Below are positions 44,494 through 49,128 of a DNA stretch of 64,000 bases, piece by piece. Source of the DNA: Acidobacteriota bacterium (lineage in GTDB: Bacteria > Acidobacteriota > Terriglobia > Bryobacterales > Bryobacteraceae); contig JAPKZB010000006.1 in NCBI GenBank assembly GCA_026393985.1, positions 79,891-143,890 of the forward strand, in the 5' to 3' direction. A program made the position numbers and the translations under genes. The notes beneath the pieces were generated by a model that saw nothing but the letters and a program-made list of their open reading frames with translations, had not been told where the DNA came from and did not search any database. Each line of letters begins with the position of its first letter. Position 1 is the stretch's first letter.

Positions 44494-44706
44494 ATGAGCA
44501 ACCCAGACGAAACGATGCGGCCAGACGGGGAGAGCCTAGACGAAGGGGCGGACTCCGGGCTGGGGTTGGGTTCCGGGATCGCGGCCCGGTTTGCGGGGGT
44601 GGGCCTGGAGTTCGAGATCCTCGAGTGGCGGGGCCACGTGATCGAACCCATGCAGTTCGCTGAGGGCGATTTTTCCGATGCCGGGGGCGCGGAGGGTGCC
44701 CCATGA
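44494..44706 (+). CDS. Small acidic hypothetical protein
   Basis: A 70-residue acidic protein starting MSNPDETMRPDGESLDEG, rich in Gly and Glu, with a more ordered centre LEFEILEWRGHVIEPMQF. GGAGGGAG precedes the ATG at good spacing, which is the main reason to accept it. It overlaps the truncated DUF433 gene by 4 bp. Position before a DUF433 fragment suggests a small component of a toxin-antitoxin-like unit, but I do not recognise the family. Confidence 0.5.
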   Translation: MSNPDETMRPDGESLDEGADSGLGLGSGIAARFAGVGLEFEILEWRGHVIEPMQFAEGDFSDAGGAEGAP

Positions 44707-44790
44707 CGGGGCCCTCGCTGATTGAGATTCGCCCGGACGTGATGCTGGGCAAACCTTGCCTGGCGGGCACCCGGATTCCCGTCTCTTCTG
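44703..44790 (+). pseudogene. DUF433 antitoxin-like gene, truncated
   Basis: Encodes MTGPSLIEIRPDVMLGKPCLAGTRIPV, which matches the first 27 residues of the intact DUF433 protein at 46332 almost residue for residue. After TRIPV the coding sequence departs from the family and runs into the hairpin repeat pair at 44794-44970. The remaining helix-turn-helix half is absent. Reading continues through the repeats only as arginine/alanine-rich noise. Confidence 0.75.
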
Positions 44791-44793
44791 AGG

Positions 44794-44970
44794 AATCGCG
44801 CACAACGGACTCGCTTCGGCCCGGCAGGGTGGGCGTGTTCCTCGCCCTTTGGTGCCGGGCCTGCGCGGCCTGTGCGCTCTTTTTGGAACCGCGCACAACG
44901 GACTCGCTTCGGCCCGGCAGGAGGGGCGAGTTCCTCGCCCGTTGGAGCCGGGCCTGCGCGGCCTGTGCGC
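44794..44970 (+). mobile_element. Hairpin repeat pair, copy 1 (80-13-80 bp)
   Basis: Two 80 bp units (44798-44877 and 44891-44970) joined by a 13 bp spacer TCTTTTTGGAACC. Each unit starts GCGCACA and ends TGTGCGC, with nested arms GGCCCGGC/GCCGGGCC and a central stem GGGCGAG/CTCGCCC, so each can fold into a long hairpin. The octamer TTCTGAGG flanks the element at 44786-44793 and 44971-44978, as expected for a target-site duplication. No gene is inside, so it would be mobilised in trans if mobile. Confidence 0.85.
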
Positions 44971-44993
44971 TTCTGAGGGTCACCCGGATGCCC

Positions 44994-45695
44994 TTAGGCC
45001 AGGCGGGTTTGGCCGGTGAAGGCTGCGGTGGGGGCGACCAGGAGGTCTTTTTCGTGGCGGGCGGCCCACCAGAGGGCGAGGCAGAGGGCCATGGCGAGGT
45101 CGTCGTGCTTGGCGGTACTTTGGCCGTTTTGCCGGAGGCCGGCCAGTTCGGCAAACAGATCCTCCGCCAGAGGCAGGCGCCGGGGAATGAGCAACGTCTG
45201 CGCTTCCACCGCGGCGCGGATGGCCGTAAACAGGTCTCGCTTCGGCACCGTGTAACAGCCCGTGGCCGTCTGGCCAGGCTCCTGACCGGAAGAGGTAAAC
45301 ACCGGCACCAGGGTGAGCGACGGGAGATAGCGCGTGGATTGCGCGTCTCGTATGATGTCCAAGACGCCGCCGCCGACGCCGCCGGCGTCGACAATGAGGT
45401 CCCGGTAGGTTTTGACCGCGACGCCATACGGGGAGGCCGCTTCGTAGCGGGTGAAGAGGTTTTTGATTTCCTGGGGGATGCGGGTATAGGCCGTGCTTAA
45501 CGGCAGGCGCACCAGGCTGCGCAGGACCAGGACCGGGCGACGGGCATGATCGTGATGGGCAGCCGACCACTCGCCGAGTTGCCATTTCCGCTCACAAAGG
45601 GCGAGAACGGTGTGGTCCCTCTCCTTGCCCAAGTCGAGGCCAAGATAGAGCAGTGGGACGAAAAGCGGCGCCTGCGGATTTTGCTTATAAATCAT
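44994..45695 (-). CDS. Terminase large-subunit nuclease domain-like protein (RNase H fold)
   Basis: A 233-residue protein resembling only the C-terminal nuclease half of phage large terminases. YLGLDLGKERDHTVLAL gives the first acidic metal ligand of the RNase H fold, DLIVDAGGVGGGVLDII the second strand with its aspartate, and KHDDLAMALCLALWWA the final acidic pair. No ATPase domain is attached. GGAG lies 6 nt before the ATG, so it can be translated on its own. The matching ATPase half is encoded 2 kb upstream on the same strand (47660-48502), with toxin-antitoxin genes between. Confidence 0.75.
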   Translation of the reverse strand: MIYKQNPQAPLFVPLLYLGLDLGKERDHTVLALCERKWQLGEWSAAHHDHARRPVLVLRSLVRLPLSTAYTRIPQEIKNLFTRYEAASPYGVAVKTYRDLIVDAGGVGGGVLDIIRDAQSTRYLPSLTLVPVFTSSGQEPGQTATGCYTVPKRDLFTAIRAAVEAQTLLIPRRLPLAEDLFAELAGLRQNGQSTAKHDDLAMALCLALWWAARHEKDLLVAPTAAFTGQTRLA

Positions 45696-45954
45696 GGCGG
45701 CTCCGTTTGATCGCGAAAAATTTGCAATTTTGTTTGGGGCCGGATTTTTCGGTGCGCATGTTGTCTCTCTGCTTCCACGATCTCGTTGGTTTGGGTGGCG
45801 CCCAGATGGTCGATTTTGGAAGTGCTTGCAAGCAGGGGAAATATAAATTTGAATGGCTTGTGATTCGCGTTTCCGGGTGAGTCGGATTTCCGAATGCCGG
45901 GTGTGTGGGCAACTGGCGATTCGGGTCGAATTGGGTGAGATCTACCTTTTGAAG
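45696..45954. other. Intergenic region before repeat copy 2
   Basis: About 260 bp of lower GC with no convincing gene. It contains the ribosome site of the minus-strand nuclease gene near 45700-45705 and probably its promoter. Confidence 0.4.
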
Positions 45955-46131
45955 AACCGCGCACAACGGACTCGCTTCGGCCCGGCAGGATGGGCGAGTC
46001 CCTCGCCCGTTGGTGCTGTGCCTGCGCGGCCTGTGCGCTCTTTTTGGAACCGCGCACAACGGACTCGCTTCGGCCCGGCAGGAGGGGCGAGTTCCTCGCC
46101 CGTTGGAGCCGGGCCCGCGCGGCCTGTGCGC
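45955..46131 (+). mobile_element. Hairpin repeat pair, copy 2 (80-13-80 bp)
   Basis: Units 45959-46038 and 46052-46131 with the same 13 bp spacer as copy 1. The first units of both copies share variants (TGGG, TTGGTGC) and the second units share others (GAGGGG, TTGGAGC), so the pair moves or is copied as a whole. Terminal GCGCACA/TGTGCGC arms are intact in both units. No target duplication could be seen around this copy. It abuts the HicA remnant. Confidence 0.85.
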
Positions 46132-46276
46132 TTATCAGAAAGGTAAACACCCCTACATGGTGAAAGGAGATCGTCGGCTACCGGTTCCCAATTCGCATGG
46201 TTCTGTGATTTCGTCCGAGTTGCTGCGCGAGATTCTGAACCGGGCAGGTATCTCCGTCGACGATTGGAATCGGTAG
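46132..46276 (+). pseudogene. HicA-type toxin remnant (C-terminal half)
   Basis: Encodes QKGKHPYMVKGDRRLPVP and then NSHGSVISSELLREILNRAG followed by ISVDDWNR, which matches the C-terminal half of HicA mRNA interferases (KGSHHY... H-G... LLR-ILRQAGIS). The N-terminal half with the start and first strand is missing and its place is taken by the hairpin repeat. No HicB antitoxin gene follows. Confidence 0.7.
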
Positions 46277-46331
46277 AGGTTGCCCGATTTGTGGGCCGGC
46301 ACTCTGGTACACTTTGCAGGGCAAATTCGAT

Positions 46332-46535
46332 ATGCAACTTCCAGCGCTGATTGCTATTCGTAGCGACGTGATGCTGGGAAAGCCTTGTCTGGAAGGTACG
46401 CGAATTCCTGTGTATCTCATTCTTGAGAAGCTGGGCGCTGGCGAAACCGTGGACGAAATCGTCGCAAGCTACGGCTACATTACGCGAGAGCATGTGCTAG
46501 CGGCGATTCAATATGGGGCAGGGTTAGCGTCGTGA
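46332..46535 (+). CDS. DUF433 antitoxin-like protein
   Basis: A 67-residue DUF433 protein: IRSDVMLGKPCLEGTRIPVYLILEKLG with the usual GKPxxxGTRIPV start and the helix-turn-helix VDEIVASYGYITREHVLAAI. DUF433 proteins usually sit before a DUF5615 PIN-like gene and are thought to be antitoxins. Here the following toxin gene (46532 onward) is frameshifted. ATG 46332 is preferred over 46314, which adds MQGKFD. Extended -10-like TGGTACACT lies about 30 bp upstream. Confidence 0.85.
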   Translation: MQLPALIAIRSDVMLGKPCLEGTRIPVYLILEKLGAGETVDEIVASYGYITREHVLAAIQYGAGLAS

Positions 46536-46680
46536 AGTTTCCGTTCGACGCCCCACATCCCTCGTCGACTCTGCGGCGTCTTGCGGAAAAATGGGTTTCG
46601 ACGTGATCGGAGTGGCGGAACCGGGGGTAGGTTGTCGGCAGGGTGACACGGCAGATCATTTTCGCTATTGTGTCAGTGTG
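46532..46680 (+). pseudogene. DUF5615 PIN-like toxin remnant, frameshifted
   Basis: GTG at 46532 overlaps the DUF433 stop and encodes MKFPFDAPHPSSTLRRLAEK, a DUF5615-like start. After a run of five A the homologous continuation GFDVIGVAEPGVGC appears one frame over, where DUF5615 has GHDVVHVRELG. Similarity then fades, and the second half of the domain is not found. The pair has lost its toxin. Confidence 0.65.
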
Positions 46681-46737
46681 AGGTTGCTGACGGCAGAACG
46701 TTTGGCCGCTGGCGAATCCAATCGAGGGAACAAGACA

Positions 46738-47016
46738 ATGGAAGTGCAACTGACAGACGACCAAAAGTGTTTTGTCCGGGACGGGATTGCCGATGGCCGA
46801 TTCCAGCGTGAGGAAGATGCGCTCCAAGAAGCCTTGTTGCTCTGGGAGGAGCGTGAACGTCGGCGAGCGGAAATTATGGCGGCAGTCGATGCGGCGGAGG
46901 CCTCGTTGGCCCGGGGCGAAGGGCTGGTTATCACAGAGGAATCGATGCGACAACTTGCCAGCGAAGTTAAAGCCAGGAGTCGTGAGCGTTGGCTCCGTGA
47001 CGTGCAAGGGCTGTGA
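46738..47016 (+). CDS. ParD-like antitoxin, orphan
   Basis: A 92-residue ribbon-helix-helix antitoxin of the ParD/CC2985 type: MEVQLTDDQKCFVRDGIADG, then FQREEDALQEALLLWEERER, with an acidic helical tail that would wrap the toxin. GAGGGA lies 8 nt before the ATG. No ParE gene follows; the next genes are a DUF433-DUF5615 pair. Either an orphan antitoxin that protects against a toxin elsewhere or the leftover of a broken pair. Confidence 0.8.
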   Translation: MEVQLTDDQKCFVRDGIADGRFQREEDALQEALLLWEERERRRAEIMAAVDAAEASLARGEGLVITEESMRQLASEVKARSRERWLRDVQGL

Positions 47017-47071
47017 TTCGTTTCAACGTGACAGTACTCAGTTAGGATAAGAATAGTAGGAGACCCGAACA

Positions 47072-47338
47072 ATGACATTGCTCGATTGGTCGCAATGCCC
47101 GGCAGTAGAGAGTGTTCCCGGTAGGGTAGGCGGCGCTTGGGTGTTTCGTGACACCCGAATGCCCGTAGCGATTGTGTTTCAGAATCTGGAAGTCGGGGCC
47201 ACTATTGAAGAAATCATGGATTGGTTTGATTTGACCCGAGAGCAGATTGTTACGGTGATCGCCTTCGCCGCGCAAAGTCTTCAAGCTCCACCTTCTGCGC
47301 TGCCAAATAAAGTCGATGCGCATATTGCTAGACCATAG
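47072..47338 (+). CDS. DUF433 antitoxin-like protein, pair 2
   Basis: An 88-residue DUF433 protein: DWSQCPAVESVPGRVGGAWV, FRDTRMPVAIVFQNLEVGAT, IEEIMDWFDLTREQIVTVI. GGAG at the right spacing precedes the ATG. It overlaps the DUF5615 gene by 23 bp, the usual arrangement of this toxin-antitoxin pair. It is clearly paralogous to the protein at 48531 (same opening DWSQC...VESVPGR), so the pair has been duplicated locally. Confidence 0.88.
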   Translation: MTLLDWSQCPAVESVPGRVGGAWVFRDTRMPVAIVFQNLEVGATIEEIMDWFDLTREQIVTVIAFAAQSLQAPPSALPNKVDAHIARP

Positions 47339-47642
47339 CGTTCCTGCACCGTTGCGGCATTACTTGAGGGGCCATGAAGTGCGTCAAGCAAAGGAACTAG
47401 GCTGGGACCGCCTCGCCAATGGTGAACTGCTGAAAGAAGCCGAATCGGCCGGAGTTGATCTGCTGATTACTGCTGACAAGAACCTTCAGTACCAGCAAGA
47501 CCTGCGGGGCCGGAGGATTTCCTTAATCATTGTTGGGAATGCTCAGTGGCCCGTCCTTCGGCGTACTGTAGATAAGGTACTCGTCGCGGTGGATGATGCG
47601 TCGCCCGGAAGTTTTGCGGAAGTTCCAATTCCGTACGAATGA
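47316..47642 (+). CDS. DUF5615 PIN-like toxin candidate, pair 2
   Basis: A 108-residue protein of the Mut7-C/DUF5615 PIN-like fold: MRILLDHSVPAPLRHYLRGH with the first acidic residue, LGWDRLANGELLKEAESAGV and DLLITADKNLQYQQDL with the second acidic site. PIN-type nucleases act as RNases in many toxin-antitoxin pairs; toxicity of this family is presumed. Overlaps its DUF433 partner by 23 bp. Confidence 0.87.
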   Translation: MRILLDHSVPAPLRHYLRGHEVRQAKELGWDRLANGELLKEAESAGVDLLITADKNLQYQQDLRGRRISLIIVGNAQWPVLRRTVDKVLVAVDDASPGSFAEVPIPYE

Positions 47643-47659: not shown

Positions 47660-48502
47660 TCATAAAGGCTCGACTTGGTCACTGAGTAGGCCTAGAAGTG
47701 ATTCTCGGCTGAAGAGGGCCGCATCGTCGCTGAGGAATTCGCAGCAGTATTCGCGGCGGAAATTGGCGGGGTTGCGCCGCTGTTCTTCGGCGAGAAACGC
47801 GGCGGGGATCCGATCGGGAATTTCGGCGGCGGTGACGCGGCGGCGCTGCCACGGGCCGCCGGGGGCATGCCAGAGATCGTAGAAGAAGCCGGACTGCCCT
47901 TTGGGGGTGGACATGAGCCAGAGGACGCCATCGGGCCGCGTGGCTAACATGGGGAGGACGGCATCGAGGATTTCGCTGCCTTTGAAGAAGGCGGCTTCAT
48001 CGACGAGGATGAGCGCCGGGGCGGAGAGGCCGCGGACATGATCTGGCACTTCGGAGAGGCCGACGATGCGGGAGCCGTTGGGAAAGTGGACGGCGAGAGA
48101 GCCGCGGCCGCCGCCATGGACGGGGAGGCCGAGCCGTTCGACAAAGTGGTAGATTTTGCGGTTGAGTTCCGAGGCCTGGTTTTCGACGGGTCCGACGACG
48201 ACGATGAGCGAGCCCGGGAAGAAGAGGGCTTGCCAGACGGCGCGGACGGCGGCGACGACGGACTTGCCCCACTGGCGGGAGGTGAGGAGCAGGAGCCGGC
48301 GGGAGCTGCCATCGAGGATTTCGCGCTGGACGGGGTCCGGATGGAAGGCGAGTTTTTCGGCGGCCCAGAGGGAGCAGCGCGGCGGCGGCCCGCTGTGGAC
48401 GGTGGCCGGCGGGGCGGGCGGCCGGGGCGCCGGAGGGCTTTCCGCCGGCCAAACGGCCTGCAGATCGCGCAAAGTTGGCTTGGTGCGGCGTGTTTTTCTC
48501 AT
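47660..48502 (-). CDS. Terminase large-subunit ATPase domain-like protein
   Basis: A 280-residue protein resembling the N-terminal motor half of phage large terminases. HPDPVQREILDGSSRRLLLL leads to Walker A TSRQWGKS (K80), SLIVVVGPVENQASELNRK is a motif-like strand, Walker B is ALILVDEAAFF, and WLMSTPKGQSGFFYDLWH gives coupling motif III. NFRREYCCEFLSD and DQVEPL form the usual link to the nuclease domain, but the gene stops there. The nuclease-like half lies at 44994-45695 on the same strand. Start ATG 48502 leaves 28 bp to the divergent DUF433 gene. Confidence 0.78.
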   Translation of the reverse strand: MRKTRRTKPTLRDLQAVWPAESPPAPRPPAPPATVHSGPPPRCSLWAAEKLAFHPDPVQREILDGSSRRLLLLTSRQWGKSVVAAVRAVWQALFFPGSLIVVVGPVENQASELNRKIYHFVERLGLPVHGGGRGSLAVHFPNGSRIVGLSEVPDHVRGLSAPALILVDEAAFFKGSEILDAVLPMLATRPDGVLWLMSTPKGQSGFFYDLWHAPGGPWQRRRVTAAEIPDRIPAAFLAEEQRRNPANFRREYCCEFLSDDAALFSRESLLGLLSDQVEPL

Positions 48503-48530
48503 ACGATAAACTGGAAGAGAGAGGTGCCCC

Positions 48531-48794
48531 ATGGTCAGAGGTTCGCTGGATTGGTCCCAGTGTGCGAGCGTGGAGAGCGTACCCGGCCGGCTGAGCGGCG
48601 CCTGGGTTTTGCGGGATACGCGGATGCCGGTTTCGATTATTTTCGAGAATCTCGAATATGGCGCAAGCATTGAAGAGATCATGGCGAACTATGGGTTGAC
48701 CCGGGAGCAGATTCAGTCGGTGTTAGATTTTGCGGCCCGCAGCGCGGCGCCGTCGATGGATGCCGGCTTAGCGACCGATGCACATCCTTCTTGA
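48531..48794 (+). CDS. DUF433 antitoxin-like protein, pair 3
   Basis: An 87-residue DUF433 protein: DWSQCASVESVPGRLSGAWV, LRDTRMPVSIIFENLEYGAS, IEEIMANYGLTREQIQSVL. GAGAGAGG lies 6 nt before the ATG. Paralogue of the protein at 47072. It overlaps the DUF5615 gene by 17 bp and is divergent from the terminase ATPase gene. Confidence 0.88.
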   Translation: MVRGSLDWSQCASVESVPGRLSGAWVLRDTRMPVSIIFENLEYGASIEEIMANYGLTREQIQSVLDFAARSAAPSMDAGLATDAHPS

Positions 48795-49128
48795 CAAGAG
48801 CGCGCCGTACGGATTGCGCCCTCACTTAAAAGGTTGCTCGATCGTTACCGCAGAAGAGCGTGGGTGGGGTCGCCTTGAGAATGGTCTCCTTTTGGCCGCG
48901 GCCGAAGAGGCCGGTTTTGAAGTTTTTCTGACAGCCGATAAGAATCTTCGATACCAACAGAACCTATTGACTCGGAAGATCGCTATTGTGGTACTCGGCA
49001 ATTCGCCATGGCCGCTGGTCCGTCTGCACATCGCCGCCGTCGTGGAGGCAGTTCACGCCGCAAAGCCGGGTAGCTATGTGACGGTGGATATCCCCTTGCC
49101 GCCGAGAGATCCCTTTCTTCCTTCCTAG
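48778..49128 (+). CDS. DUF5615 PIN-like toxin candidate, pair 3
   Basis: A 116-residue DUF5615 protein: MHILLDKSAPYGLRPHLKG, ERGWGRLENGLLLAAAEEAG, FEVFLTADKNLRYQQNLL and IAIVVLGNSPWPLVRLHI. Acidic residues D6 and the one in LTAD fit the PIN-like active site. Paralogue of the protein at 47316 and paired in the same way with a DUF433 gene. Confidence 0.88.
   Translation: MHILLDKSAPYGLRPHLKGCSIVTAEERGWGRLENGLLLAAAEEAGFEVFLTADKNLRYQQNLLTRKIAIVVLGNSPWPLVRLHIAAVVEAVHAAKPGSYVTVDIPLPPRDPFLPS

What the first reader, a model, noticed from the sequence alone, without database searches (positions are those of the whole stretch)
44794..46131. Undescribed paired hairpin repeat (80-13-80 bp) in two copies
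Four 80 bp units occur as two pairs (44798-44877/44891-44970 and 45959-46038/46052-46131), each pair joined by the same 13 bp T-rich spacer. Every unit has terminal GCGCACA/TGTGCGC arms, an inner GGCCCGGC/GCCGGGCC stem and a central GGGCGAG/CTCGCCC hairpin. First units share one set of variants and second units another, so the pair is the unit of copying. No encoded protein fits. This looks like a non-autonomous, REP-like or MITE-like family of this lineage.
Basis: seen in the sequence. Interest (0 to 1): 0.72.

Follow-up and report, generated by a model that had tools for sequence, protein, structure and literature searches.

The report
Tandem hairpin repeats tied to IS110
A family of short folded DNA repeats, scattered through this Acidobacteria genome and its close relatives, inserts preferentially at one short motif and shares that motif and its end sequence with an RNA-guided jumping element, which suggests that the element moves the repeats or lives off them.

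Summary
The four 80-bp units are real, but they are not just two pairs. The 80-mer has 76 matches in the window's genome, some partial, and a 31-bp core form has 52 (at least five counted twice). Related units occur in 14 of 18 other genomes of the genus and in 0 of 6 from other genera of the family. Units stand alone or head to tail with an 11-13 bp joint. Empty sites and copy-number differences in relatives fit insertion and array turnover. Insertion favours CT|TYTRA; a third of usable left junctions lie at an ORF's stop codon; no target duplication longer than about 2 bp is seen. No RAYT/Y1 gene was found beside units. Instead an IS110-family element has nearly the same joint (18 bases with the consensus), and its non-coding end holds two stretches that match target and donor sites, as bridge-RNA guides would. 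Best reading: palindromic repeats moved in trans by an IS110 recombinase (0.5). Main rival: IS110 merely lands in repeats that another enzyme moves. Nine repeat-bearing genomes show no such IS110.

The parts
44703..44784 (+). 5' part of a DUF433 gene split by pair 1
   Evidence: PF04255 profile positions 1-22 of 56; uninterrupted homologue in G017; G010 has an array at the same place and keeps the 3' part
44785..44797 (+). leader (left joint) CTTCTGAGGAATC of pair 1
   Evidence: leader consensus
44798..44877 (+). 80-bp hairpin unit 1a
44878..44890 (+). 13-bp spacer (array joint) TCTTTTTGGAACC
44891..44970 (+). 80-bp hairpin unit 1b (79 of 80 identical to 2b)
44970..44977 (+). right joint CT|TCTGAG of pair 1
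45946..45958 (+). leader CTTTTGAAGAACC of pair 2
45959..46038 (+). 80-bp hairpin unit 2a
46039..46051 (+). 13-bp spacer TCTTTTTGGAACC
46052..46131 (+). 80-bp hairpin unit 2b
46131..46138 (+). right joint CT|TATCAG of pair 2
46133..46276 (+). 3' part of a HicA-like gene; the 5' part does not stand on the other side of pair 2
   Evidence: PF07927 profile positions 18-58 of 58, E 4e-5, below the curated cut-off; fuller homologue in G012 L299 over the cut-off

Best explanation
The repeats are a non-autonomous mobile family. The mobile unit is [TYTRAGGAACC + palindrome + GCGCT], with a palindrome of 80 bp or a 31-bp core. Shown: units sit preferentially at CT|TYTRA without a long target duplication; they stand head to tail with the same joint as the unit ends; orthologous sites can be empty or hold different numbers of whole units. 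Inferred: the joint is the attachment site of an IS110-family (bridge-RNA-guided, DEDD) recombinase. The IS110 element in the closest genomes would have nearly the same joint in its circular form, and its upstream non-coding region has two guide-like stretches that read the same site as target and as donor. The recombinase would then act on the repeats in trans, or carry them along in over-sized circles and excise later. Each insertion leaves a new joint that is itself a target, which would give ordered head-to-tail arrays.
For: (1) Mobility: an empty orthologous site in CoA2 C42 (L149) against a filled one in M025S2 (L138), and a less clean one (L059 empty, L142 filled). (2) Right flanks: 160 of 166 unique junctions have CT; in the 134 that are not leader-like 128 have CT, then consensus T, C/T, T, G, A; YYTRR in 45 of 134 against 12 of 1340 positions further down the same flanks. 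(3) Left and right flanks agree beyond shuffles only at +2 and +3, so no target duplication of usual length. (4) The IS joint of L140 and the repeat joint that I wrote as consensus share CGCTTCTGAGGAACCGCG, 18 bases. In L054 the IS end reads GGAACCGCG while the repeat beside it reads GGAACGCG, so the IS owns its copy. (5) TCAGAAG, a motif chosen after seeing it, occurs twice in the 252-nt IS upstream region, sense only; 9 of 20000 Markov shuffles reach that. The first stretch changes with the target side (CAGAAG in G000 and G016, CAAAAG in G006 and the L105 remnant), the second with the donor side where known (TCAGAAG in G000 and G016, TTAGAAG in G006). Target loop before donor loop is the order in IS621 (PMC11208160, passages). 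(6) Leader TTCTRA/TTTTRA is 4/15 in G006 (15 more without the motif) and 42/27 in G000+G010+G016 (30 more without), Fisher p 0.0036. (7) Internally deleted 187-bp forms of the IS exist beside units (L026, L060; L068 cut by a contig end). (8) A seekRNA of this family is needed for movement of the IS or of a cargo flanked by IS ends (PMC11187229, abstract and passages).
Against: IS110 protein relatives are found in only 6 of 19 genus genomes (close ones in G000, G006 and G016), while 15 of 19 have the repeat; nine repeat-bearing genomes, among them G007, G010 and G013 with 14, 44 and 13 matches, show none at E <= 1e-40 or 1e-30. A 93-bp or 43-bp double-stranded circle is physically implausible (own judgement). 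Identity at the supposed 2-bp core is far from strict (82 and 69 of 135), and the left dinucleotide is CT in only 82 of 132. The strict leader motif is in 93 of 145 left flanks. The G006 shift is not seen on the target side (p 0.59), and in G006 the repeat leader fits the target guide better than the donor guide, as expected if the IS only targets the repeats. No right-hand guides were recognised. The predicted folds of the four non-coding ends disagree in detail. Guide co-variation rests on two or three lineages. Most IS loci were fetched because they hold units; of the four close relatives found by protein, three adjoin a unit and the fourth (L203) shows none on its one visible side. The window's own T-rich joint shares only 9 bases with the IS joint.
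Confidence: 0.5

Rival explanations
1. REP-like family moved by another enzyme, present or lost; the IS110 element only uses the repeat joint as its landing site, as other IS110-family elements use REP sequences.
For: IS elements that insert in REPs, IS110-family ones among them, are well known (PMC1525189, abstract; PMC11208160, passages; PMC8450116, passages). The repeat is far wider spread in the genus than this IS110. In G006 the target guide, not the donor guide, fits the repeat leader.
Against: The IS shares with the repeat not only the target motif but nine further bases of its own end (GGAACCGCG). The guide fits the general target motif of the repeats (TCAGAAG), not the leader-specific bases next to it. 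No other transposase gene was seen framed by units, but only Y1 and IS110 were searched for.
Confidence: 0.34
2. Classical RAYT/REPIN-type family moved by a Y1 (HUH) transposase.
For: Palindromic, many copies, no target duplication, singles and clusters.
Against: Y1 genes in 12 of 19 genomes; 0 of 30 fetched Y1 loci (45 matches in all; 20 of the 30 in the genus) has a unit within about 1.5 kb, less at contig ends. G010 has none yet is copy-rich. No GTAG or CGTC tag in the window units by reading. G012-G018 were not searched for Y1.
Confidence: 0.06
3. Structured 3'-end element (terminator or RNA stabiliser) kept by selection, spread by ordinary recombination and slippage.
For: 33 of 96 left junctions with motif and stop codon (136 examined) sit at the stop of an ORF of at least 100 codons, against 541 of 3791 background motifs; a T-rich joint follows the hairpin. 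With divergent units included, 29 compensatory cells against about 12 in shuffles.
Against: Insertions also split genes (DUF433 in the window). No excess of compensatory change in the 41 non-redundant close units. Precise joints and empty sites call for a recombinase.
Confidence: 0.1

Closest known systems
REP/REPIN elements with RAYT transposases (PMC3733652, passages and section 16; PMC2817692, start of abstract only)
   Same: Short palindromes, high copy number, lineage-specific, single and clustered, often at gene ends
   Different: No GTAG/CGTC tag, no RAYT link found, head-to-tail rather than alternating orientation, 80-bp nested palindrome, 11-13 bp joint that resembles the insertion target
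IS110/IS1111 elements that insert in REPs (IS621, ISPpu9, ISPa11; PMC11208160, PMC8450116, PMC11187229, PMC1525189)
   Same: IS110-family gene lies in palindromic repeats; non-coding upstream region with guide-like stretches
   Different: Here the IS joint and the consensus repeat joint share 18 bases and both guide-like stretches read the same site
MITEs / mini-IS of IS110 type (general knowledge)
   Same: Non-autonomous, share end sequence with an IS in the same genome; 187-bp internally deleted IS copies occur beside them
   Different: The 31/80-bp unit shares only the joint with the IS and shows no usual target duplication
TIRtrons of Acidobacteria (PMC3733652, section 16)
   Same: Palindromic repeats of Acidobacteria, some in dimers and clusters
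   Different: Those flank Y1-type transposase genes; no such link was found here

Membership tests
REP/RAYT | GTAG or CGTC tetranucleotide at the foot of a 20-40 bp palindrome | tested here: not met
   Absent from the window units by reading; core palindrome is 31 bp, full unit 80 bp
REP/RAYT | RAYT gene flanked by the repeat | tested here: not met
   0 of 30 fetched Y1 loci of 45 matches in 19 genomes
REP/RAYT | High copy number of short palindromes in one lineage | tested here: met
MITE of a DDE transposon | Target-site duplication of several bp | tested here: not met
   Left/right agreement beyond shuffles only at +2 and +3; identical 5-mers 8 of 132, shuffled mean 5.5, 342 of 2000 shuffles reach it; matching positions 333 of 660 against 308
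Non-autonomous IS110 satellite | Shares donor joint with an IS110 in the genome | tested here: met
   18 identical bases with the consensus joint; only 9 with the window's own T-rich joint
Non-autonomous IS110 satellite | Conservative insertion with a short identical core | tested here: inconclusive
   CT on the right in 128 of 134 but on the left in 82 of 132
Non-autonomous IS110 satellite | Guide stretches matching target and donor | tested here: inconclusive
   Left guides found and co-varying in few lineages, right guides not found
Non-autonomous IS110 satellite | IS110 present wherever the repeat is | tested here: not met
   6 of 19 genus genomes against 15 of 19; these are drafts and break in repeats
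Non-autonomous IS110 satellite | Mobilised in trans by the recombinase | not testable with these tools
   needs experiment
Rfam RNA families | Covariance-model match | tested here: not met
   0 matches at gathering in the window, 0 at E <= 1 in 44700-46200

The most novel reading that the evidence does not exclude
A palindromic satellite family, down to a 31-bp core plus a 12-bp joint, is propagated and kept in ordered head-to-tail arrays by a bridge-RNA-guided IS110 recombinase whose target and donor guides read the same site, so that every insertion creates the next landing site. It would be a very small RNA-guided mobile unit and a natural case of array building by a bridge recombinase.
Probability: 0.3. 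Interest if true: 0.78.

Novelty: new variant of a known kind. Interest (0 to 1): 0.5.

Why it matters
REP-type palindromes are thought to be moved by RAYTs. A family with no RAYT link that shares joint, target motif and guide-like stretches with an IS110 element would give bridge-RNA recombinases their own satellites. It makes testable whether such recombinases build tandem arrays. It also accounts for a split gene in the window and for contig breaks in these assemblies.

Tried and rejected
RAYT/Y1 partner: rejected for lack of association. Segmental duplication of one pair: rejected. CRISPR: spacers are near-constant, 11-13 bp in 105 of 118. Known RNA family: none. Plasmid or phage origin: no match in either collection in distant mode. 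Structure kept by selection: no signal in 41 close units, moderate once 37 further ones were added. A first right-flank count had an offset error and is replaced. A notebook line giving 15 of 18 relatives is wrong; one search gives 14 of 18. Other IS110 loci: L206, L207, L209, L210, L214 and L215 carry no full unit and no good leader match; L208 adjoins a unit and L216 holds one inside the gene. One search printed 653 lines and was cut; I picked six cases by eye from the visible part, so they are examples and not a rate; case C is a paralogue, case A is not clean. One search mixed in chance matches and was cut; no number is taken from it. The right-junction count leaves out arrays whose last unit is partial or lacks TGTGCG within one mismatch. 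Genome handles were equated with named assemblies (G010 = M025S2, G016 = CoA2 C42, G006 = LacPavin) because contig lengths agree; this is inference. Papers: I saw passages of PMC3733652 and all of its section 16, passages of PMC11208160, PMC8450116 and PMC11187229, the abstract of PMC1525189 and search listings of the rest. A report of repeats moved by IS110 was not seen in the listings; this covers open-licence papers only and I did not open most of them.

Full report
What is there. The four units at 44798-44877, 44891-44970, 45959-46038 and 46052-46131 exist as described, with the spacer TCTTTTTGGAACC in both pairs. Each folds to -47 to -54 kcal/mol; 0, 0, 1 and 0 of 200 shuffles do as well. 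The second units are 79 of 80 identical; the first units agree at only 74 of 80.

How many. The window's genome (5.9 Mb, 96 contigs) has 76 matches to one 80-mer at E <= 0.001, some partial (105 candidates, 40 scored), and 52 to the 31-bp form GCGCACAACGGCCTCGCTTCGGCCTGTGCGC at up to 3 mismatches, with 0 for the reversed control. At least five places appear in both lists. Several contigs begin or end inside a unit, so arrays are probably under-counted. The 80-mer looks like the 31-mer with a nested hairpin inside: both start GCGCACAACGG.CTCGCTTCGGCC and end TGTGCGC. Arrays can mix both forms.

Where else. The 173-bp pair matches in 16 of 41 genomes: the own genome, 14 of 18 others of the genus, and one weak match (E 7e-4) in another family of the order; 0 of 6 from other genera of the same family. 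No match in 72,556 plasmid or 50,697 phage records. Own, G010 and G016 genomes have many arrays, G006 mostly single units; in the loci examined G014 and G007 have single units of a diverged form.

Anatomy of arrays. In 174 distinct arrays or units from the fetched loci 104 are single, 35 double, 26 triple, 5 fourfold and 4 fivefold, partial units included; 105 of 118 joints are 11-13 bp. One gap-broken array has nine unit hits. The joint before the first unit and the joints inside arrays resemble TYTRAGGAAC(C); a strict form stands in 93 of 145 left flanks. The last unit ends GCGCT.

Insertion. Examples from a cut listing, aligned: M025S2 carries a unit in ..CTTCGCTTC/TGATAAC.. where CoA2 C42 has the uninterrupted CTTCGCTTCTGATAAC. 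CoA2 C42 carries a three-unit array where the own genome has none; the edges there are off by a base. Three orthologous arrays differ by whole units: three against one, two against one, and long-short-short against short. In 166 unique right junctions 160 have CT after the palindrome. In the 134 whose right side is not itself leader-like 128 have CT, and the next bases follow T, C/T, T, G, A; YYTRR stands at 45 of 134 against 12 of 1340 positions further down the same flanks. Over 135 loci with both sides, left and right bases agree clearly more than shuffled only at +2 (82, expected 75.6, 16 of 500 shuffles) and +3 (69, expected 55.3, 2 of 500). So there is no target duplication of ordinary length, but a strict 2-bp core is not shown either.

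Sites. Of 136 left junctions with at least 400 bp upstream, 96 have the motif with a stop codon, and 33 of these lie at the stop of an ORF of 100 codons or more, against 541 of 3791 background motifs. One gene of this kind was tested: in L140, where the IS110 stands between gene and unit, it is an outer-membrane beta-barrel protein (PF25183). In the window pair 1 splits a DUF433 gene: the homologue in G017 is uninterrupted, and G010 has an array at the same point with other units and another spacer and still has the 3' half. In the own genome that half does not follow the array; I did not search the whole genome for it. Pair 2 abuts the 3' part of a HicA-like gene.

Partner. Y1 transposases occur in 12 of 19 genomes searched, but 0 of 30 fetched loci (of 45 matches) has a unit; 20 of the 30 are from the genus. 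A 1.7-kb element between units on contig C32 encodes an IS110-family protein (PF01548 E 2e-15, PF02371 E 2e-8). Copies or remnants: L054 (own), L140 (G016), L203 and L113 (G006), partial L178; 187-bp internally deleted forms L026 and L060, L068 cut by a contig end, and L150 (one IS end at a contig start, G010). Eight of these nine show a unit on at least one side and L203 shows none on its visible side, but most of the nine were fetched because they hold units. Of the four close relatives found by protein alone, three adjoin a unit. The L140 joint shares CGCTTCTGAGGAACCGCG with the repeat joint that I wrote as consensus; the window's own T-rich joint shares only 9 bases. In L054 the IS end (GGAACCGCG) differs from the neighbouring repeat (GGAACGCG), so it is not simply a copied flank.

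Guides. The 252 nt between IS end and gene hold TCAGAAG twice, sense only (9 of 20000 Markov shuffles; the motif was chosen after seeing it). In the alignment of four ends the first stretch reads GTTCAGAAG, GTTCAGAAG, GTTCAAAAG and GATCAAAAG, and the target side of the joint changes in step (for G006 it is read on another contig end, L113); the second reads GATCAGAAG twice and GATTAGAAG in G006, in step with the donor side, while the L105 remnant reads GAATAAAAG and its donor side is lost. In IS621 the first loop reads the target and the second the donor (PMC11208160). The number of lineages is two or three. Right-hand guides were not found, and the individual folds differ.

Against. Only 6 of 19 genus genomes have a relative of this IS110 (G002, G005 and G014 at 44-48% identity), so nine repeat-bearing genomes lack a detected one (thresholds 1e-40 and 1e-30). 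The leader difference of G006 (4/15 against 42/27, p 0.0036; 15 and 30 leaders without the motif left out) fits the guides, but the target side does not differ (p 0.59), and the G006 leader fits the target guide better than the donor guide. This is what one expects if the IS only lands in the repeats. A double-stranded circle of 93 or 43 bp is hard to imagine; carriage with the IS in a larger circle followed by IS excision is an inference.

Structure. Among 41 non-redundant close units compensatory change does not clearly exceed shuffles. After adding 37 from further loci of the genus there are 29 such cells against about 12. The control does not keep relatedness. The hairpin may be maintained, but its role is open.

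Verdict. A real, lineage-specific palindromic repeat family with signs of mobility, not a RAYT/REP family by two tested features. Link with an IS110 element: shown by position, joint and target motif in the closest genomes. That the IS110 moves the repeats: inferred, about even odds.

Noticed in passing
window 44994-45695 (-) and 47660-48682 (-): A terminase-like protein: the part at 47660-48682 matches PF03237 (E 1e-12); the piece at 44994-45695 has no Pfam match and by eye reads like its C-terminal part, with DUF433/DUF5615-type genes between. DNA relatives of the second piece occur in G012, G017, G001 and G009.
   Followed up: partly
window 46314-47642 and 48531-49128: DUF433 genes (46314-46535 and 47072-47338 tested) and DUF5615-like genes (47316-47642 tested, below cut-off), like toxin-antitoxin modules; the pair at 48531-49128 looks alike but was not tested.
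   Followed up: no
L298 (G010:C83): At the site of window pair 1 the relative carries a two-unit array with other units and spacer CTTCTGAGGAATC: turnover in place.
   Followed up: partly
L064 2024-2543 (G000:C78): Array of the 31-bp short unit at 43-44 bp period, with a gap of Ns, ending in one 80-bp unit.
   Followed up: partly
L208/L103 and L169/L216 (G016): A second IS110 subfamily: one copy adjoins a unit, another copy has a unit inserted inside its gene.
   Followed up: partly
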